Shown one piece after another: positions 36,144 to 44,902 of a stretch of DNA of 52,038 bases. The position numbers and the translations under genes are program-made. Position 1 is the stretch's first letter. The number at the start of each line of letters is the position of its first letter. The notes beneath the pieces are model-generated. The model was not told the origin of the DNA. It ran no database searches and was given only the letters and a program-made list of their open reading frames with translations. This DNA comes from Flavobacteriales bacterium (GTDB lineage: Bacteria; Bacteroidota; Bacteroidia; Flavobacteriales_D; Crocinitomicaceae), in NCBI GenBank assembly GCA_015665275.1, contig JADFAL010000025.1:1-52038 (forward strand). Direction: 5' to 3'.

Positions 36144-36521
36144 ATGAATAGAGGATTGAGAATTACGCATTGGTTGACAACCGGCCTCGTTTGCCTATTG
36201 TTCACGGCATCGGCATTGACATACATTTTAAGACACGATGAAGTAAGCGAAACTTTCCATTTAAATTTGGGGTTTCCTGCATGGCTTGTGTATCCTATGG
36301 CCGTTGCAAAATTAGGAGCAGTGATTATGTTGCTTTCAAAATTCAATAGAACCTTAACGGAAATTGCTTATGCAGGATTGGTATTTAATATGCTGTTGGC
36401 AGTAGGTGTCCATGTTTTAACTGGAGATTCTCAAATAATTGCTCCAATTGTTGCTTTGATCCTAATATTCGGATCGTACTTTACCTGGAAAAGAAAGTTG
36501 AAATTGGGATTGAACGATTAA
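36144..36521 (+). CDS. DoxX-like small membrane protein
   Basis: A 125-aa protein with four hydrophobic segments (WLTTGLVCLLFTASALTYIL, WLVYPMAVAKLGAVIMLL, IAYAGLVFNMLLAVGVHVL, IIAPIVALILIFGSYF). The size and the LGFPAWLVYPMAVAKLGA pattern match DoxX-like proteins (DoxX_2 subgroup) of the inner membrane. The role of the family is poorly defined; some members are linked to redox. Its stop overlaps a convergent minus-strand stop by 4 nt. Confidence 0.82.
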   Translation: MNRGLRITHWLTTGLVCLLFTASALTYILRHDEVSETFHLNLGFPAWLVYPMAVAKLGAVIMLLSKFNRTLTEIAYAGLVFNMLLAVGVHVLTGDSQIIAPIVALILIFGSYFTWKRKLKLGLND

Positions 36522-37048
36522 AAGTTCAAGAAGGCCAAAAGTGTATCCTGTTCCTCCACATGGAACATATTAGAAGACACCATATCCATCACTGTAGTGT
36601 GAATTAAAACATCGCCGTTCAACCATTCGATTTCTGTAGAATCAGCAGCCATTTCGGCTACCATATCCGGATTCGGATTGAAATTACGCTCCATCATTGC
36701 TCGGTGAGCATACACGCGAATTACGGGTGATTTATGCGACAAAAGCTCATTGAGTTCAAATTCATTCGCAGCAGTACGAAGGCGTGAATAATGGTGATAC
36801 GTTTTACACTTAACCATTGCACCGGGACCTGTATATTCTTCTGTAATTTGTTTTGATTCAGCCAACTCTCCTGCAAGAATGTCAACGTGCTGCTGGTGGC
36901 GCAGTGAATCGTCTGCATTTTTCAACTCCCATTGTGCCAACAATTCTACTTCTTCATCATCAATGACACCATCGCGCGCACTCAAAGAGTAGGTCTTAAT
37001 GACCAACGCCAAAATGATAGAAAATAATGTTAGCAACTTGAATTTCAT
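36518..37048 (-). CDS. Exported protein coupled to the KPVIYLYP gene array
   Basis: ATG 37048, 4 nt after the preceding stop, gives about 176 residues with a hydrophobic leader (MKFKLLTLFSIILALVIK). The rest is helical; LLSHKSPVIRVYAHRAMM resembles one HEAT-repeat unit, and the end is acidic. I recognise no family. It is the last gene of the five-gene minus-strand unit and may act with the four paralogues. The alternative ATG at 37084 would overlap the previous gene and gives a poorer leader. Confidence 0.65.
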   Translation of the reverse strand: MKFKLLTLFSIILALVIKTYSLSARDGVIDDEEVELLAQWELKNADDSLRHQQHVDILAGELAESKQITEEYTGPGAMVKCKTYHHYSRLRTAANEFELNELLSHKSPVIRVYAHRAMMERNFNPNPDMVAEMAADSTEIEWLNGDVLIHTTVMDMVSSNMFHVEEQDTLLAFLNF

Positions 37049-37052
37049 CTCC

Positions 37053-38027
37053 TTAAAAATCTTCCAACAAGACTTTAGAAGCATTTACTTCGGCACCACC
37101 CCATTCAAGGACCGTAAAACCATCTCTTTGCATTTTAGGAACCTCTTGAGATTCCAGCGAAGGATTGTAGTTGTCAGGTACCGTTGCCCAAAGAACGTAA
37201 AAACGTCCGATTTGAGTAGGCTTTGGGCTGATCTCTAATGAAGCAAATGCATCACACACCTCATTGAAAAGCAAGTAAATATACAAATTACTTTTTGTTT
37301 GCAAGATCGGTCCCCAATAGGTGATAAAATCGGCGCGTTCTTCACTCGTCATTCCAAACTGCTGCATCTGAATTTCGAGATATTCAACGGCGTCTGTGCC
37401 GGAAAGAACTACTCCTTCCTTTTTGTTGATGAGTTGTGTAGGAATATCTTGTTCGGATTCCCAGAAAAGATATCGATAAGCTTCCTCCTCGCGCTTCAAT
37501 GTCCCATACGGTTCGCACGCAAAATTCCATTCCAGATCAATATTTGGATAAGTAAACGTGAACTCACCTACAGGATCAACTTTTATTGAAACATCTGTTG
37601 TCTCCTCTGGATAGAGATAGATTACTGGTTTTCTCACAGCATCAATCTTATACGCTCTCGAAAAATTGATACGATACATACTTCGATGTCCACCTTTTAT
37701 TTCCAATTGCATGAGGCGTGTTTCGGCATATTCCTGTCCGGCGTAAAATTGAAAGGAATGAGCACCGGGCACAGTGTGAATGGCCAATGTATCACCTGCT
37801 GAGTAGGGATAAAATAAATTTTCGCCGCCGTCGATGGAGTAAATCAGTTGTTGCTCTCCTAAGTCCGCATCTAAGGTCGTCAAGTCAAAAAGGTAGAGTG
37901 CTTGGTCTTGATTGAGGTTCTGATCCACACTGTCATAAATCAAAGTGTACGGCATCATCAAATAGGAGTCGGAAGCATTGGCTTGAAACGATGCAATGCT
38001 GAGTAATGCAAGGAGTAACTTTTTCAT
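37053..38027 (-). CDS. Exported KPVIYLYP-domain protein, copy 4 of array
   Basis: ATG 38027 overlaps the preceding stop by 4 nt and gives a 324-aa protein with a signal peptide (MKKLLLALLSIASFQANA). It has an N-terminal beta region with PGAHSFQFYAGQEY and then the shared C-terminal domain: KPVIYLYPEETTDVSIKVDP, FTYPNIDLEW, YRYLFWESEQ, SEERADFITYWGP, and terminal DGFTVLEWGG. In the third motif this copy has TYW where the others have TFW. The C-terminal domain also occurs in uncharacterised proteins of Firmicutes, from memory of the family. The function is unknown. Confidence 0.8.
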   Translation of the reverse strand: MKKLLLALLSIASFQANASDSYLMMPYTLIYDSVDQNLNQDQALYLFDLTTLDADLGEQQLIYSIDGGENLFYPYSAGDTLAIHTVPGAHSFQFYAGQEYAETRLMQLEIKGGHRSMYRINFSRAYKIDAVRKPVIYLYPEETTDVSIKVDPVGEFTFTYPNIDLEWNFACEPYGTLKREEEAYRYLFWESEQDIPTQLINKKEGVVLSGTDAVEYLEIQMQQFGMTSEERADFITYWGPILQTKSNLYIYLLFNEVCDAFASLEISPKPTQIGRFYVLWATVPDNYNPSLESQEVPKMQRDGFTVLEWGGAEVNASKVLLEDF

Positions 38028-38986
38028 AGCGTACGAACCATTGTAGTTGACGGTAATTCCTGACCTCCCCATTCCAAGACTGTAAATCCTTCGCGATTCA
38101 TGACAGGTATCTCTTGCGCTCGTGGTGCTATACGAAGTTGATCAACAGGTTGCCAAACCACGTAAATCCGATATACATTGTCTGGTTTTGGTTCAATTTC
38201 TAATTCTCCGAATTGGTCACATTCCTCGTTGAATTTGAATTGTAGAAAAACATCTTCATGAGATGCCATTCGTGGCCCCCAGAAGGTGATGAAATCTGCG
38301 CGTTCTGTGCCATTCAATCCTGCATCTGTCAATTTCTCTTCTAAGAGCGCTGTGACATCCAATCCTGGAACGGTGAATCCTGTATTGAAATCAATTTCTT
38401 CGATGCTCAATTGCTCTGAAGCTTCCCAAAACAGGTAATTGTAGGACTGATCGTCCACAATTAATTTCCCGTCAGGGGATGCCAATACATCCCAACCATT
38501 TTCATATTTCGGATATGTGAAGGTAAATTCTCCCGCTGGGTTCACTTTGACCTGAACATATTGTTCCTCTTGCGGATACAGATATATCACTGGCTTTTCA
38601 GTCAAGATCATCATTTCCGCCGGTGTGAAATTGATCGAGTAATAGTAATGCTTTCCGGCTTCGATGTGAATGACTCCATATTCTTCATAGTAGTCTGGGG
38701 AATAATAGAATTGCAAGCTGTGTGATCCTGCGATGGTTTCCAATTTCAAATCCCCTTGATTGGTGATGAGCGAATGTTCACCTTCAACGTCGTTCAAACC
38801 ATATGTGATAGAAGTTCCCGATAAATCGTTGGCGTTTGGGAAACTGAAGTAAACCATTGATTTGCTTCCTAGGTTGGAATCAACTTTCACAGAATCTGGG
38901 CGATAAATTTGAATTTCGAGTTCTTTCTGTCCCGCAAAAGTTAACGTTGTAACAAATAGCGTGGTCAATAAAATCAAATGTTTCAT
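38024..38986 (-). CDS. Exported KPVIYLYP-domain protein, copy 3 of array
   Basis: A 320-aa protein with signal peptide MKHLILLTTLFVTTLTFAG. N-terminal beta module with AGSHSLQFYYSPDYYEEYG; C-terminal domain with KPVIYLYPQEEQYVQVKVNP, FTFTYPKYENGWDV, NYLFWEASEQ, GTERADFITFWGP and EGFTVLEWGGQE. All motif positions align with the other three copies, yet the spacer sequences are well diverged, so the duplications are old. It overlaps its neighbours by 4 nt on both sides. No catalytic residues can be named. Confidence 0.8.
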   Translation of the reverse strand: MKHLILLTTLFVTTLTFAGQKELEIQIYRPDSVKVDSNLGSKSMVYFSFPNANDLSGTSITYGLNDVEGEHSLITNQGDLKLETIAGSHSLQFYYSPDYYEEYGVIHIEAGKHYYYSINFTPAEMMILTEKPVIYLYPQEEQYVQVKVNPAGEFTFTYPKYENGWDVLASPDGKLIVDDQSYNYLFWEASEQLSIEEIDFNTGFTVPGLDVTALLEEKLTDAGLNGTERADFITFWGPRMASHEDVFLQFKFNEECDQFGELEIEPKPDNVYRIYVVWQPVDQLRIAPRAQEIPVMNREGFTVLEWGGQELPSTTMVRTL

Positions 38987-39984
38987 AGCGATGTATTAGG
39001 TTGATAGTTAGAAATCTGTCCGCCCCATTCCAGCGCAACAAAACCTTCACGATTGAATTTTGGAAGTGCTTGCGGCTGAGTTGCAACTTCTGAATCAATG
39101 GCGGACATGAATATGTAGAATCTATATACGTGATCAGGTTGTGGCGTAATATTCAATTCAGCAAATTTGTCGCACGTCTGGTTCCATTCGAAACGCACCA
39201 AACTGTTTTCGTTCGCAGCTAATTTTGGGCCCCAGAAAGTGATAAAATCGGCCCGTTCTTCTGAGGTGAATCCTACTTGAGTGAGTTTATCTTCGAGGAA
39301 GGAAACCGCGTCTTCTCCTGCAACGGAAAATCCTTCGTTTACCTCAATTTCTTCCAAATGATCTGCTTGTTCAGCTTCCCAGAATAAATAGCGGTAGTCG
39401 ATTCCATTCATCTCTATATTTCCATCCGGCAATGCAACACAGGTCCAATTTTCATTGTATTCAGGATAGTAGAATGGATTTTTTCCGTTATGAATTTCTA
39501 ATTCCACCTCTACAGTTGTTTCTGTCTCGGGATAGAGGTAAATTACTGGTTTGTAAGTAACGATAGGCACTTCGGCTCTACGTGTAAATAGAATGACGCT
39601 ATACGTGTGTTGGTATTGAGCTGGGATGCTTAAAATGCCACTAAAAACTTCGAGATAATTTTGATTTAGATAGAACTGGAAGGAATGATTTCCTGGAGTC
39701 GTCATGATTGAAATTTGTCCTGCACTTAATTGCCCATCGTAATTCACAGAATCTATGCTGTATGAGATAAAAGCATTAGAATCAGAGCTCATTAAATTTT
39801 CGAACTGAAATACAAATTGGGACTCAGACTGAGAATAATCGCTTTGAAATGCAGTGTCTATTAGATGGAATTGGACAAGGCGTTTCATGTCTTCCATTTG
39901 GCGATTTTCGTAGAAATCCCCGCCAGGTTGAGCTTGTACGTGTGCAAATGTCAAAATTGAAAAAATGATTAGTGCATTTCTCAT
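38983..39984 (-). CDS. Exported KPVIYLYP-domain protein, copy 2 of array
   Basis: A 333-aa protein, signal peptide ending AHVQAQ. N-terminal module with PGNHSFQFYLNQNYLEVFSG; C-terminal domain with KPVIYLYPETETTVEVELEI, FYYPEYNENWTCVALPDGN, YRYLFWEAEQ, SEERADFITFWGP and EGFVALEWGGQ. The ENWTxxxxPDGN/PNGN section is shared with copy 1, which makes these two the closest-looking pair. Predicted to be periplasmic or surface-exposed. It overlaps copy 1 and copy 3 by 4 nt. Confidence 0.8.
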   Translation of the reverse strand: MRNALIIFSILTFAHVQAQPGGDFYENRQMEDMKRLVQFHLIDTAFQSDYSQSESQFVFQFENLMSSDSNAFISYSIDSVNYDGQLSAGQISIMTTPGNHSFQFYLNQNYLEVFSGILSIPAQYQHTYSVILFTRRAEVPIVTYKPVIYLYPETETTVEVELEIHNGKNPFYYPEYNENWTCVALPDGNIEMNGIDYRYLFWEAEQADHLEEIEVNEGFSVAGEDAVSFLEDKLTQVGFTSEERADFITFWGPKLAANENSLVRFEWNQTCDKFAELNITPQPDHVYRFYIFMSAIDSEVATQPQALPKFNREGFVALEWGGQISNYQPNTSL

Positions 39985-40952
39985 AGCGATAAGGTATTAG
40001 AAATTGTTGGGATTTCTTGGCCACCCCATTCGATAGCCGTGAATCCTTCTCGTTGGAACGGTGTTAGCTCTTGTGCTTTTGGTATGTGATTGCCGTCGTA
40101 CGCCCCCCATGACATATAAAATCGATGTAAATTATCGGGAGCAGGGGAGATGTTCAATTCAGCGAAAGCATTGCAGTCAAGATCTTGATGAAAGGTCACG
40201 AAAACTTGTTCCTCCTTTTGCATCTGCGGTCCCCAGAAGGTAATGAAATCCGCCCGTTCGCTAGCGGTGAATCCGACGTAGTTTAATTTTTCCTCAAGGA
40301 AACTTGTAATATTATCTGATGTAACAACGAATCCTGCCGTTTCCTTAGGATTTAATGCATCCATTTCTTGTTTCGATTCCCAGAACAAATACTTGTATAC
40401 TTCTCCTTCAATCTCTAAGTTTCCATTTGGATGCATGGTTCCTGTCCAGTTTTCATTGTATGGAGGATACGTAAATGCCATTTCTCCTTTCGCTTCAACA
40501 TTCACTTCAAAGGTAGCGGTGGATTCTGGATAGAGGTAAATTATCGGTTTGTCGACTTCAATTTGCATTCCCTCCGTTCGGAAGGTGCGAATGGAATAAT
40601 AGTGCTTTTCATTTGCTACCAGCGGTAAGTTGTGCGAATAAACCTCGAAGTAGTTGTCATTCACATATATAACGAATCGATGAGAACCTTCTGTAACCTG
40701 ATATTCAAATGCACCTTTCTTCAATTGAATGGTCTCGTTCATTCCGTCGTCACAACTCAGTGTAATTCGTGCGGAAAGATCAACTTTATCCAAATCACTG
40801 AACTTGAAATGGTACACACCTGTATTAACGGGTAGTCCTGATGCCGGTTCTGATTTCTCGAAAATGAAATTTGCCGCGATGCGCTTTTCTTCAGCAAAGG
40901 AAATCATCGAAATCAGTAGGAATAAAAGAAGTAAGTATGTTGATTTCATCAT
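39981..40952 (-). CDS. Exported KPVIYLYP-domain protein, copy 1 of array
   Basis: First gene of the array. ATG 40952 (or 40949) gives about 323 residues with a signal peptide (LLLLFLLISMISFAEE). N-terminal module with EGSHRFVIYVNDNYFEVYSH; C-terminal domain with KPIIYLYPESTATFEVNV, FTYPPYNENWTGTMHPNGN, YKYLFWESKQ, ASERADFITFWGP and EGFTAIEWGGQE. It follows alaS on the same strand with a 143-nt gap that holds a weak terminator, so the array probably has its own promoter within that gap. Function unknown. Confidence 0.8.
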   Translation of the reverse strand: MMKSTYLLLLFLLISMISFAEEKRIAANFIFEKSEPASGLPVNTGVYHFKFSDLDKVDLSARITLSCDDGMNETIQLKKGAFEYQVTEGSHRFVIYVNDNYFEVYSHNLPLVANEKHYYSIRTFRTEGMQIEVDKPIIYLYPESTATFEVNVEAKGEMAFTYPPYNENWTGTMHPNGNLEIEGEVYKYLFWESKQEMDALNPKETAGFVVTSDNITSFLEEKLNYVGFTASERADFITFWGPQMQKEEQVFVTFHQDLDCNAFAELNISPAPDNLHRFYMSWGAYDGNHIPKAQELTPFQREGFTAIEWGGQEIPTISNTLSL

Positions 40953-41038
40953 CAATGTTTTTCTAATGTACAAAAATGATGCAGAAAGGTTCAGTTGAGG
41001 TAACAGACGTATTTACGTTTCAATTTGTCGAAACGTCT

Positions 41039-41057
41039 AAAAGCAAGCGCAGCTTGC
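41039..41057 (-). terminator. Weak terminator-like hairpin after alaS
   Basis: GCAAGC/GCTTGC with a 3-nt loop (41043-41057), read on the minus strand, is followed by TTTTAG. A second hairpin, ACGTTTC/GAAACGT (41015-41036), lies just beyond. Both fall in the alaS-to-array gap. Confidence 0.4.
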
Positions 41058-41095
41058 AGTCTAGTGTTTAAAAGCGCAGCGATTCTATTATCTGC

Positions 41096-43711
41096 CTACC
41101 CCAAAGTTGCTTCAATCTCAGCAATTGCAGCTTTCAACCCGTCTGGATTTTTACCTCCTGCGGTCGCAAAGAAAGGTTGGCCACCACCACCGCCTTGAAT
41201 GTGCTTCGAGGCAGATCGAACCAAGTTCCCAGCGTGGATATCTTTCTCTTTCACCAAGTTGTCAGAAGCAATAACACTTAACGTGCATTTACCATCAGCT
41301 TTACCACCAATAATACCTACAAAATTGTCTACTTCTCCTTTGAACTGGAAGAGGATGTCTTTGATCGAGTTGCCGTCCAATTCTACTGTTTCCGATAACA
41401 AATGGATTCCATTGTGTTCTTTGATCGCCGATTTCAATTCCGACTTAACCCCTTTGGCTTTGTCTTTCTTCAACTGATCAATTTCCTTCTGAAGTTGCGT
41501 GTTTTTGTCCGTCAAATCTTCAATTGCTTTCACAATATCCTTCGGATTCTTTAAATGCGCTGAAAGGCAATCCAACAATCCAGCTTTCTTCTTGTAATAA
41601 GCCTCAGCCGTTTTTCCAGTTATGGCTTCAATACGGCGTACACCAGCAGCCACCGCAGTTTCTTGCGTAATGATAAACAATCCAATTTCTCCAGTAGTTT
41701 GAACGTGTGTTCCTCCACACAATTCCACGGAGTCACCGAATTTGATTACACGAACCGTATCGCCATATTTCTCTCCAAAGAGTGCCATTGCGCCCATTTC
41801 AAGAGCGATCTCCATCGGCGTGTTCCGTTTCTCTTCCAATGGAAAGTTCTTGTGAATGCTAGACTCAACAATAGCTACAATTTGCTCCATTTCTTCATCT
41901 GTCACTTTCGAGAAATGAGAGAAGTCAAATCGTAAATGATCAGGGCTTACCAAAGAGCCTTTTTGTTCCACGTGCGTTCCTAACACGCAGCGCAAAGCTT
42001 CATGCAACAAGTGCGTCGCCGTGTGGTTATATGCAGATGCCAATCGAAGTGTAGAATTTACAACCGCTTCATAAGTAGCATCAAGGTGCTCTGGAAGATC
42101 ATTCATCAAGTGAACAATCAGGTTGTTTTCTTTTTTCGTATCGAAAACAGAGTATTTCGTATCGTTGAACTCTAAATATCCCTTATCTCCAACTTGTCCA
42201 CCTCCTTCGGGATAGAACGGTGTGAGATTAAAGACTACCTGATAGAACGCTTTCTTTTTCTGAGTGACTTTACGGTACTTCACAATTTTCACGTGCGTAC
42301 TCAATAGGTCATATCCAATGAACTCTTGAACGTTGTCTTCTCGAAGTACAACCCAATCGTCTGTTGTAAGGGAGGTTGCTGCACGAGCTCGATCTTTTTG
42401 TCGATTCAATTCGGATTCAAATCCAGCTTCGTCTACACCTAAGTCATTTTCACGAGCAATTAAAGATGTTAGGTCCAACGGAAAGCCATAAGTATCATGC
42501 AATTCGAAAGCTACAGTTCCGTCAATTACTGATTCGCCGCTTTTCTTAACTTCTGCAATGACATTGTCCATGCGTCGCAAACCTTGCTCCAACGTACGGA
42601 AGAAACTTTTTTCTTCCTCTTCAATAACCTTGTGAATCAACGTTTGTTGTTGGTCCAATTCCTGGAATGGATTCTTCATGATATCCACTAAAGTATTTGA
42701 CAACTCGGCTAGGAATGGCTCCTTCAGATTCAAGGTTTGATATCCGTAGCGAATGGCGCGACGAAGAATCCGACGAATTACGTATCCAGCCCCTGTATTT
42801 GAAGGTAATTGCCCGTCTGCGATAGAGAAAGCAATTGCCCGTACGTGATCCGCAATTACGCGAAGTGCAATATCCGTTTCTTCTTTTACGCCGTATTTTA
42901 CGCCTGATATCTGTTCCATTTTACCAATCAAGGTTTGGAACAAATCGGTGTCGTAATTCGATTGTTTTGCCTGCAAGGCCATTGCCAAGCGTTCAAGTCC
43001 CATTCCAGTATCAACGTGTTTTTCGGGAAGTGGTTCCAGCGATGCGTCTGCTTTGCGATTGAATTCCATAAATACGTTATTCCAAACTTCAATCACTTGC
43101 GGGTGATCTTCGTTTACCAACGATTTTCCGTCTACTTTCGCGCGGTCTTCTTCGGATCTTAAATCAACGTGAATTTCAGAACAAGGTCCACAGGGTCCCA
43201 TGTCACCCATTTCCCAGAAATTATCTGCTTTGGATGCCAAAAGAATGCGGTCTTCCGCAATGTACTTCTTCCAAATGTCGTAAGCTTCCTGATCTACAGG
43301 AAGGTTGTCGGTTTTGTCTCCTTCAAAAACAGTTACGTACAATCGATCCTTCTCGATTCCGAATACTTCCGTTAATAAATCCCACGACCATTCGATTGTT
43401 TCTTCTTTGAAGTAATCCCCAAACGACCAGTTTCCAAGCATTTCAAACATGGTATGGTGGTAGGTGTCAACCCCAACTTCTTCCAAGTCATTGTGCTTTC
43501 CGGATACACGTAAGCATTTTTGAGAATTGGCGACACGACGGTTTTTAGGTACGGCATTCCCTAGGAAATAGTCCTTGAATTGGTTCATTCCGGCATTGAT
43601 AAACATCAGCGTAGGGTCGTCTTTAACCACCATCGGTGCGCTTGGCACAATCTCATGTCCTTTGGATTCGAAGTAATCGAAAAACTTTTGGCGTATCTCT
43701 GAAACTGTCAT
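41096..43711 (-). CDS. alaS: Alanyl-tRNA synthetase
   Basis: An 871-aa class II synthetase that charges tRNA-Ala in the cytoplasm. The catalytic core opens with [22 protein letters not shown] and [15 protein letters not shown]. The editing domain has the zinc/editing [11 protein letters not shown] and [13 protein letters not shown]. The C-terminal C-Ala domain ends with the glycine-rich [25 protein letters not shown]. Full length, no disruptions. The MscS gene lies upstream on the same strand, about 70 nt away. Confidence 0.97.
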
Positions 43712-43783: not shown

Positions 43784-44902
43784 CTATTTAATTTCTTGCT
43801 TGTAAATTGTTTGAGTTGGGAAGGCAAATTCTAAACCTTCAGCATTGAACTGCTTCAAGATTTCGAGGTTGATTTCTGATTGTGCTGAAAGAATGTAATC
43901 ATCCGACTTGATATAATAAATCACCAATATCCCCATGGAGAAATCTCCCCAAGTATTGAATGAAATCAAAGGTTCATCTGTTACTTTGTCATTGGCAACA
44001 ATAATGGCGCGAAGTAACTTCATTGCTTTCTCCATTTGCTCTGGAGTAGTGTCATACGTTAAACCAAGTGTATTTGAAATTTTTCGAGTTGGCTCTAGTG
44101 TTACGTTCTCTACTGGATTGTCGCTGAACTGACCATTCGGAACGGTAATCAAACGTCCTTCCAAAGTACGCAAGCGTGTGCTTCGTACTCCAATTTCTTC
44201 CACAAAACCATCCATTCCATTCACCTTGATACGATCGCTCATTTTGAAGGGCTTGTCAAGGAATACCATGATTCCACCGAAAATGTTTTTCACAGTGTCT
44301 TGAGCGGCAAGTGCTAAAGCCAAACCTCCAATCCCTAGACCAGCAATCATTGCTCCAATGTTGAATCCACTGTTGCTCAAAGCGATTAGCACCCCCATGA
44401 TCCAAATGATCGCGGTTACTGTTTTTCGGACTATTGGCAACAATTGATCGTCAAAATCACTTTCCGATTTTTCTACTACCGGAACGAGGTATTCTTCCAC
44501 CAAAGAATCGAGAACTCGGGCAATCAGCCACGTTACGTTCAAGATGAAGACAATCATAAAGGTGGTAGCGAAGAAGCTATCTACAGCGTCTGTAAAATGC
44601 AAGCGATTGAACCCCCAGTAAAAACCAAGAATTACGATTCCATAGACAACAGGTTCCTCCAGCTTATCCACAAGAATATCATCAAGACTTGTTTTAGTCT
44701 TGGCAGCGAAGGATTTTACGATGCCTCCGGTGATTTTGTACAAAAGCTTTCCTATGATCAAGGAACTTATCAGAATTACGACAGAAACAACCCAATCGAA
44801 TATGGAATTTGGTCCCCAATTGTCTTGCAAAATGTCAGGAACCCAACTTGGGAATTTGCCTGAAGAACCATAGTGTTTTAACTGGAAAAAGAATGAATTC
44901 AT
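43784..44902 (-). CDS. MscS-family mechanosensitive ion channel
   Basis: A 372-aa inner-membrane protein. Four hydrophobic segments precede the MscS pore and beta domain, recognisable by GAMIAGLGIGGLALALAAQDTVKNIFGGIMVFLDKPFKMSDRI. It is followed by RSTRLRTLEGRLITVPNGQFSDNPVENVT and a C-terminal alpha-beta cytoplasmic cage. It opens under membrane tension to release solutes on osmotic downshift. The length is between the small MscS and the large MscM types. A TATCTTCG sequence in the minus-strand upstream region resembles a -7 box with one change. Confidence 0.92.
   Translation of the reverse strand: MNSFFFQLKHYGSSGKFPSWVPDILQDNWGPNSIFDWVVSVVILISSLIIGKLLYKITGGIVKSFAAKTKTSLDDILVDKLEEPVVYGIVILGFYWGFNRLHFTDAVDSFFATTFMIVFILNVTWLIARVLDSLVEEYLVPVVEKSESDFDDQLLPIVRKTVTAIIWIMGVLIALSNSGFNIGAMIAGLGIGGLALALAAQDTVKNIFGGIMVFLDKPFKMSDRIKVNGMDGFVEEIGVRSTRLRTLEGRLITVPNGQFSDNPVENVTLEPTRKISNTLGLTYDTTPEQMEKAMKLLRAIIVANDKVTDEPLISFNTWGDFSMGILVIYYIKSDDYILSAQSEINLEILKQFNAEGLEFAFPTQTIYKQEIK

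What the first reader, a model, noticed from the sequence alone, without database searches (positions are those of the whole stretch)
37053..40952. Tandem array of four paralogous KPVIYLYP-domain secreted proteins
Four genes of 320-335 codons lie head-to-tail, each overlapping the next by 4 nt. All keep an N-terminal (H)SFQFY-type module and a C-terminal domain with KPVIYLYP, YLFWE, ADFITFWGP and GFTxLEWGG, while the rest has diverged strongly. The C-terminal domain is familiar to me only from uncharacterised proteins, mainly of Firmicutes. Four diverged copies on one message suggest a hetero-oligomeric extracellular complex or a set of binding proteins with different specificities.
Basis: partly seen in the sequence, partly recalled or inferred. 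Interest (0 to 1): 0.8.

Follow-up and report, generated by a model that had tools for sequence, protein, structure and literature searches.

The report
Tandem secreted proteins, one uncatalogued domain
Four neighbouring genes make secreted proteins that carry the same unnamed domain, found in many gut and water bacteria but absent from the family libraries and solved structures we searched, each joined to its own fast-changing front part.

Summary
Four paralogous genes (320-333 codons, minus strand, 40952-37053) overlap by 4 nt at each junction. Each has a signal-peptide-like start, an N-terminal beta-sandwich (a diverged transthyretin-like module) and a C-terminal ~185-aa domain. The C-domain is predicted with high confidence (pLDDT 94.6) but has no convincing match in Pfam, NCBIfam or the PDB (sequence or Foldseek); one giant-virus protein model shares the fold. 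It occurs in Bacteroidota, Bacillota and Spirochaetota, in 54 of 55 complete non-Bacteroidota relatives at the extreme C-terminus: alone behind a signal or lipid anchor, or behind dockerin, S-layer, choline-binding, SH3 or LRR parts. Five charged positions (D/E, E, R, R, E) hold in all 180 distinct domains examined. In the window's genus 20 of 34 genomes carry the family, 17 of them directly before the same core gene; 18 other-genome loci hold 1-7 copies. Copies 1, 3 and 4 are positional orthologs in two related species, and N-modules change faster than C-domains. My reading: one conserved extracellular 'head' carried on several diverging 'mounts'. What the head binds or does is unknown; a fixed four-part complex is disfavoured.

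The parts
39981..40952 (-). copy 1 (323 aa): signal-peptide-like start, transthyretin-like N-module, C-domain
   Evidence: tree: 100/100 clade with the first copies of G126 and G139
38983..39984 (-). copy 2 (333 aa); N-module evolves fastest; in the tree its ortholog is found only in G126
   Evidence: dN of the N-module 0.88 against G126; AlphaFold2 model of this copy
38024..38986 (-). copy 3 (320 aa)
   Evidence: AlphaFold2 model of its C-domain
37053..38027 (-). copy 4 (324 aa)
39553..39924 (-). N-module of copy 2 (residues 21-144), diverged carboxypeptidase-regulatory / transthyretin-like beta-sandwich; matching stretches in the other copies: 40892-40551, 38926-38597, 37967-37632
38024..38608 (-). 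C-domain of copy 3 (the KPVIYLYP...EWGG domain); in the other copies 40562-39981, 39564-38983, 37643-37053
36518..37048 (-). fifth gene (176 aa, no family), same strand, 4 nt after copy 4: a core gene of the genus that marks one edge of the slot; not an obligate partner
41096..43711 (-). alaS, upstream neighbour (not part of the system)
   Evidence: TIGR00344 E 2.3e-269; position in relatives

Best explanation
An accessory operon of secreted two-part proteins. The C-terminal ~185-aa domain is a conserved extracellular 'head' with one common job, binding or acting on a widespread ligand through an invariant charged and aromatic site (D/E62, E102, R147, R172, E179 with W39 and W180; copy-3 domain numbering). 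The N-terminal part is the 'mount' that decides where or with whom the head works. In the window the mount is a fast-diverging transthyretin-like module in four versions; in Clostridia its place is taken by a lipid anchor, S-layer, choline-binding, SH3 or dockerin parts. Copies arise and are lost in place, so different species show the same head on different sets of mounts. Shown: anatomy, homology of both modules, C-terminal position, conserved genomic place, copy turnover, and the faster N-modules. Inferred: one transcript, secretion, that the invariant residues form one site, that the head binds or catalyses, and that the mounts set location or partner.
For: C-domain within 14 aa of the C-terminus in 54 of 55 complete non-Bacteroidota proteins; 17 of 55 have at most 65 aa in front of it, 12 of these with a lipobox-like motif, and one of the 17 (L087) has 106 aa after it. 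Anchor or docking parts: dockerin in 15 of 58, SH3 in 5, SLH in 2, choline-binding in 1. Five charged positions unbroken in 180 of 180 distinct domains taken without any motif requirement. High-confidence model without a PDB match. N-module linked to carboxypeptidase-regulatory domains by profile and by own-genome paralogs with clear PF13715. N dN 0.27-0.88 against C dN 0.14-0.21 between orthologs. Positional orthologs of c1, c3 and c4 in two species and of c2 in one.
Against: No ligand, substrate or localisation is known. The invariant residues could be a buried structural network; I had no coordinates to test whether they cluster. The N-module may evolve fast from weak constraint rather than from partner choice; dS is above 1 or undefined in every comparison, so selection could not be tested. 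No partner gene is shared among Clostridial neighbourhoods.
Confidence: 0.42

Rival explanations
1. Hetero-oligomer: the four proteins assemble into one periplasmic or surface complex, and tight 4-nt coupling sets the stoichiometry.
For: 4-nt overlaps at every array junction of G126 and G139; c1, c3 and c4 kept as separate orthologs.
Against: Copy number is 1-7 in the 18 other-genome loci examined, 2 of them with a single copy in genomes with one match in all; c2 has no ortholog in G139; broken copies beside intact ones.
Confidence: 0.2
2. The C-domain is an enzyme of a new fold, and the copies are isoenzymes aimed at different extracellular substrates.
For: Three acidic and two Arg positions with two Trp held in 180 of 180 distinct domains; dockerin fusions in 15 of 58 relatives and one protein with a GH11 match.
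Against: No invariant His, Ser or Cys; no similarity to any enzyme found.
Confidence: 0.2
3. Poly-immunity array: a string of secreted immunity proteins against toxins of competitors, growing and shrinking in place.
For: Tandem, variable copy number, fast amino-acid change; strings of non-identical immunity genes are known (PMC9484751, start of abstract seen in the search listing).
Against: No toxin gene recognised among the neighbours scanned; the same domain is carried by dockerin, S-layer and LRR proteins in Clostridia; none of the 78 A3 members has a convincing PADLOC match (best E 0.0076).
Confidence: 0.08
4. The C-domain is a C-terminal sorting or export tag and not a functional head.
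For: Nearly always extreme C-terminal (54 of 55), with variable cargo in front.
Against: 17 of 55 have little but a signal or anchor in front of the domain, so there would be no cargo; the domain is large and strongly conserved.
Confidence: 0.07

Closest known systems
Carboxypeptidase regulatory-like / transthyretin-like domain (PF13715, PF13620)
   Same: N-module: profile-profile link (95-96% probability, E 2e-8 and 4e-9; window type to intermediate type E 2e-25); PF13715 or PF13620 at E <= 0.01 in 8 and 5 of 78 family members; own-genome paralogs L117 at E 1e-14 and 3e-15
   Different: The window's own four copies score nothing for it in Pfam, and the direct profile alignment has 5% identity
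Unannotated C-terminal region of Ruminococcus dockerin proteins (perhaps among the 'UNK' modules of R. flavefaciens FD-1, PMC2930009)
   Same: 15 of 58 scanned relatives carry a dockerin with this domain in the same protein; the paper counts 118 dockerin proteins with 155 domains of unknown function (passages seen)
   Different: I did not check which of the paper's UNK modules are this domain; the window proteins have no dockerin
Uncharacterized protein A0A3G4ZNZ8 of Terrestrivirus (giant virus)
   Same: C-domain fold: Foldseek E 3.2e-13, probability 1.00, TM 0.73 on the query, 21% identity
   Different: 406 aa, other context, not characterised
Tandem lipoprotein or immunity paralog arrays of other bacteria (S. 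aureus lpl, esaG strings)
   Same: Tandem paralogs in one place
   Different: No sequence relation tested; known here only from the listing

Membership tests
Carboxypeptidase-regulatory / transthyretin-like domain (N-module) | Pfam match above the gathering score in the protein itself | tested here: not met
   no PF13715/PF13620 match in c1-c4
Carboxypeptidase-regulatory / transthyretin-like domain (N-module) | Homology through intermediates with the same architecture | tested here: met
   the three sets compared were chosen by me by eye
Carboxypeptidase-regulatory / transthyretin-like domain (N-module) | Beta-sandwich fold matching solved transthyretin-like domains | tested here: inconclusive
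   (8 strands, residues 39-131); carboxypeptidase N and D entries align over 84-85 columns (E 0.015 and 0.039), none at E <= 0.001; query ranges not printed
Any named family, for the C-domain | Match to a Pfam or NCBIfam model | tested here: not met
   no convincing match in 102; best scattered single-member hits E 0.0017 (Pfam) and 0.0062 (NCBIfam)
Any solved fold, for the C-domain | PDB sequence or Foldseek match | tested here: not met
   none at E <= 10; best E 0.33, probabilities of the 50 rows printed <= 0.18; the second aligner was unavailable
Type IX secretion cargo | C-terminal sorting domain after the functional part | tested here: not met
   no sorting-domain model at E <= 1 (copy 3 has a weak N-terminal hit to a PorU model, E 0.053); the proteins end 11-13 aa after EWGG
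Poly-immunity array | Cognate toxin encoded beside the array | tested here: inconclusive
   response regulator, Ppx/GppA, ABC transporter, alaS and an MscS-like gene identified; three neighbours without a family; no toxin recognised, not every neighbour scanned

The most novel reading that the evidence does not exclude
The C-domain is a new fold with one conserved charged site: an unnamed, widespread extracellular recognition or catalytic module shared by Bacteroidota, Bacillota, Spirochaetota and a giant virus. The array is a device that displays this one head on a changing set of transthyretin-like mounts. It would explain part of the 'unknown' modules of Ruminococcus cellulosomes.
Probability: 0.35. 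Interest if true: 0.75.

Novelty: new variant of a known kind. Interest (0 to 1): 0.5.

Why it matters
A strongly conserved extracellular domain found in 17 of 296 sampled Bacteroidota genomes (the window's own included) and 18 of 196 of one Clostridial class (two of them seed genomes already known to carry it) has no convincing entry in Pfam or NCBIfam and no solved relative found. Naming it would annotate dockerin, S-layer and lipoproteins together. The tandem arrays, with old orthologous copies and natural single-copy and array-less relatives, give a ready comparative set for finding out what it does.

Tried and rejected
Sequence search of the PDB with one copy (best E 0.35, PCSK9) and with the A3 profile (best E 0.054, desmoglein, over N-module columns only) gave nothing convincing. 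PHROGs on A3 gave 11 families, each in 1 of 78 members, three of them endolysins; I take these to be the extra parts of long members but did not check which member. PADLOC gave nothing convincing. Viral contigs: 74 stretches matched the patterns, none confirmed. Phages: one record. Plasmids: one R. albus record, plus one chance hit at E 7. Clostridial and other non-array neighbourhoods (59 loci): only two broad transporter-like groups recur by my reading of the sequences (13 and 6 loci), one group of 4 that is an antisense reading of the domain gene, and a serpin-like lipoprotein by eye in 3, so no shared partner. Scan of 36400-41200: no promoter excess (11 found, 11.7 expected) and no terminator excess (1 against 4.1); the alaS-c1 gap folds with z -1.0. 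Domain swapping as the cause of the fast copy-2 N-module: its five best N-module matches are copies of other genus members, none in its own array, so not supported. Gene 5 as partner: rejected, since it is present in 12 of the 14 genus genomes without the family. A resemblance to a Planctomycetes/Myxobacteria hypothetical family is recalled from memory and was not tested. Papers: the motif strings KPVIYLYP, VIYLYP, YLFWEG, VVEWGG and TVLEWGG occur in no held paper; this says nothing on papers outside that library. PMC3573020 (passages) describes another Ruminococcus module and does not bear on this one.

Corrections made on checking: the rows of A4 were picked with a KP..Y.Y motif (3 proteins without it dropped, and 7 further rows, near-copies and L087, left out), and the six divergent rows were picked with motif and EWG, so conservation there is partly built in; I recounted without a motif. 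Copy-4 dN was recomputed from the proper start, with no material change.
Full report
What is there. Four genes on the minus strand, 40952-37053, encode proteins of 323, 333, 320 and 324 aa. Each overlaps the next by 4 nt, and all three junctions read CGCTATGA. They are 33-42% identical to each other; the N-part is 19-32% and the C-part 40-49% identical. All four begin with a signal-peptide-like stretch and lack a lipobox (by eye). alaS lies upstream (TIGR00344). A fifth, unrelated 176-aa gene follows 4 nt downstream, then on the other strand a 125-aa gene without a family and genes for a sigma-54 response regulator, a Ppx/GppA protein and an ABC transporter.

Two modules. AlphaFold2 on copy 2 with 78 sequences gives mean pLDDT 90.0 and pTM 0.73, with an N-terminal beta-sandwich (residues about 39-131) and a C-terminal domain (about 139-325) of strands with two long helices. 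The N-module is best read as a diverged carboxypeptidase-regulatory (transthyretin-like) domain. The window copies themselves match nothing of the kind in Pfam, but 8 and 5 of 78 relatives match PF13715 and PF13620 at E <= 0.01. Two paralogous lipoproteins in the window's own genome (L117) match PF13715 at E 1e-14 and 3e-15. Profile comparison links the window-type modules to intermediates (E 2e-25), the intermediates to the canonical type (96.0%, E 4e-9) and the window type to the canonical type directly (95.4%, E 2e-8, 5% identity). Foldseek of the whole model gives no PDB match at E <= 0.001, but several 84-87-column matches include carboxypeptidases N and D.

The C-domain. Modelled alone (copy 3, 102 sequences) it reaches pLDDT 94.6 and pTM 0.91. 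Foldseek finds no PDB match (best E 0.33). A profile finds no PDB sequence even at E 10. Of 102 C-domains none has a convincing Pfam or NCBIfam match. In the BFVD library of viral protein models there is one strong match, an uncharacterised Terrestrivirus protein (E 3.2e-13, TM 0.73). Conservation: one search showed 14 invariant positions in 108 sequences, but those rows had been picked partly by motif. Recounted without a motif (every hit at E <= 1e-5 covering at least 85% of the profile in the loci held; 3 shorter hits dropped), 180 distinct domains all have D or E at 62, E102, R147, R172, E179, P33, W39, W180 and G181; the table has 181 rows because the reference counts twice. W110 fails in 1, K5 in 2 and W61 in 4. 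I had no coordinates, so whether these residues meet in space is not known.

Where else it occurs. In samples, 17 of 296 genomes of the window's phylum (own genome included; taken as Bacteroidota from the record titles), 18 of 196 of the class of L062, a Lachnoclostridium (two seed genomes included) and 3 of 98 of the class of L103, a Treponema (E <= 0.001, one seed included) carry it. In 54 of 55 complete non-Bacteroidota proteins (4 partial ones dropped) the domain lies within 14 aa of the C-terminus, the exception being L087 with 106 aa after it; 17 of 55, L087 among them, have at most 65 aa in front, 12 of these with a lipobox-like motif. Among 58 relatives, 15 have a dockerin, 5 an SH3_3 domain, 3 a copper-amine-oxidase N-domain, 2 SLH and 1 choline-binding repeats. 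A Ruminococcus flavefaciens assembly (L074, G536) has 13 copies. Passages of PMC2930009 report 118 dockerin proteins with 155 unknown domains in R. flavefaciens FD-1; the overlap with this domain was not checked.

The array as a locus. In the taxonomic family of the window (probably Crocinitomicaceae: the record titles name it for several matching loci, though some titles of the same group differ), 72 of 240 genomes match, the window's own included. Of the 43 other genomes with at least two matches in the printed list, which was cut, 42 have copies side by side. Of the 20 stretches I took, mostly from the best matches, 2 are the own genome's dispersed sites; of the other 18, 16 hold 2-7 linked family ORFs (the 7 of L121 include pieces, one ORF of L125 is short) and 2 hold one. 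In the genus, 20 of 34 genomes carry the family somewhere; in 17 of the 20, gene 5 lies at most about 2.2 kb downstream of a copy on the same contig, in 2 it is on another contig and in 1 it was not found. alaS lies within four genes upstream in 7 of 10 genus loci examined, with other genes between in four of them. Gene 5 is in 31 of 34 genomes, including 12 of the 14 without the family, so it is a core neighbour and not an obligate partner. Of six array-less stretches, four show alaS, gene 5, the response regulator and Ppx in the same order, with about 1.3-1.4 kb and no match to copies 1-3 between alaS and gene 5; in the fifth alaS was not seen in the 6.3 kb upstream, and in the sixth alaS and a partial gene-5 match are 3.3 kb apart without the response regulator. 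Genomes without the family are smaller (median 2.5 against 3.5 Mb, Mann-Whitney p 0.0005; 2.4 against 3.6 Mb, p 0.0006, in the 23 at least 90% complete; rounded sizes, not corrected for relatedness).

History. In a 68-protein tree, copies 1, 3 and 4 each form a 100/100 clade with their positional counterparts in G126 and G139. Copy 2 pairs only with the second copy of G126 (100/100), and G139 has no counterpart. So the copies look older than these three species and have not been homogenised. Between orthologs, dN is 0.21-0.23 for c1, c3 and c4 and 0.41 for c2, against 0.05-0.06 for alaS and 0.08-0.11 for gene 5. N-modules (0.27-0.37; 0.88 for c2) change faster than C-domains (0.14-0.21). dS is above 1 or undefined in every pair, so I make no statement on selection; the response-regulator comparison with G126 in that call paired the wrong genes and is not used. 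The five best matches of the copy-2 N-module are not in its own array.

Reading. A conserved C-terminal head with one job, carried at the end of very different secreted proteins, and in this lineage on four old, diverging transthyretin-like mounts coupled in one probable transcript. This fits the facts better than a fixed four-part complex, given the variable copy number, or a sorting tag, given the standalone forms. What the head binds or does is open.

Noticed in passing
L117:6963-8840 (own genome, contig C21): A second pair of adjacent paralogs, lipoproteins with a clear PF13715 module and the same C-domain, beside an oppositely oriented LRR protein.
   Followed up: partly
L118:8055-9797 (own genome, contig C2): A single 581-aa lipoprotein-like protein with the C-domain at its end and no recognised domain in front.
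   Followed up: no
L121:9674-10647 and L125:7784-8179: Array copies that look broken or shortened beside intact ones, fitting birth and death in place.
   Followed up: no
L074 genome (G536): Thirteen copies of the domain in one Ruminococcus flavefaciens assembly, in open frames of 751-1240 residues.
   Followed up: partly
L073, L074, L092: A serpin-like lipoprotein gene lies within the fetched stretch in 3 of 59 loci (recognised by eye); a weak chagasin-type match (E 0.0025) occurs in a dockerin relative.
   Followed up: no
phage record MT835506.1, 4416-4964: An unannotated human-faecal phage record encodes the domain at 38% identity.
   Followed up: no
window 37048-36518: The core gene downstream of the array has a signal-like N-terminus and no family; 24 invariant columns in 9 sequences.
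   Followed up: partly
L061:7464-8588 and L068:7413-8597: Flavobacterium proteins with a TonB-plug-like stretch (by eye in both; Pfam Plug in 1 of 58 members), a carboxypeptidase-regulatory-like stretch and the C-domain.
   Followed up: no
window 43784-44902: An MscS-like mechanosensitive channel gene upstream of alaS, below the curated cut-offs (best E 2.6e-27).
   Followed up: no
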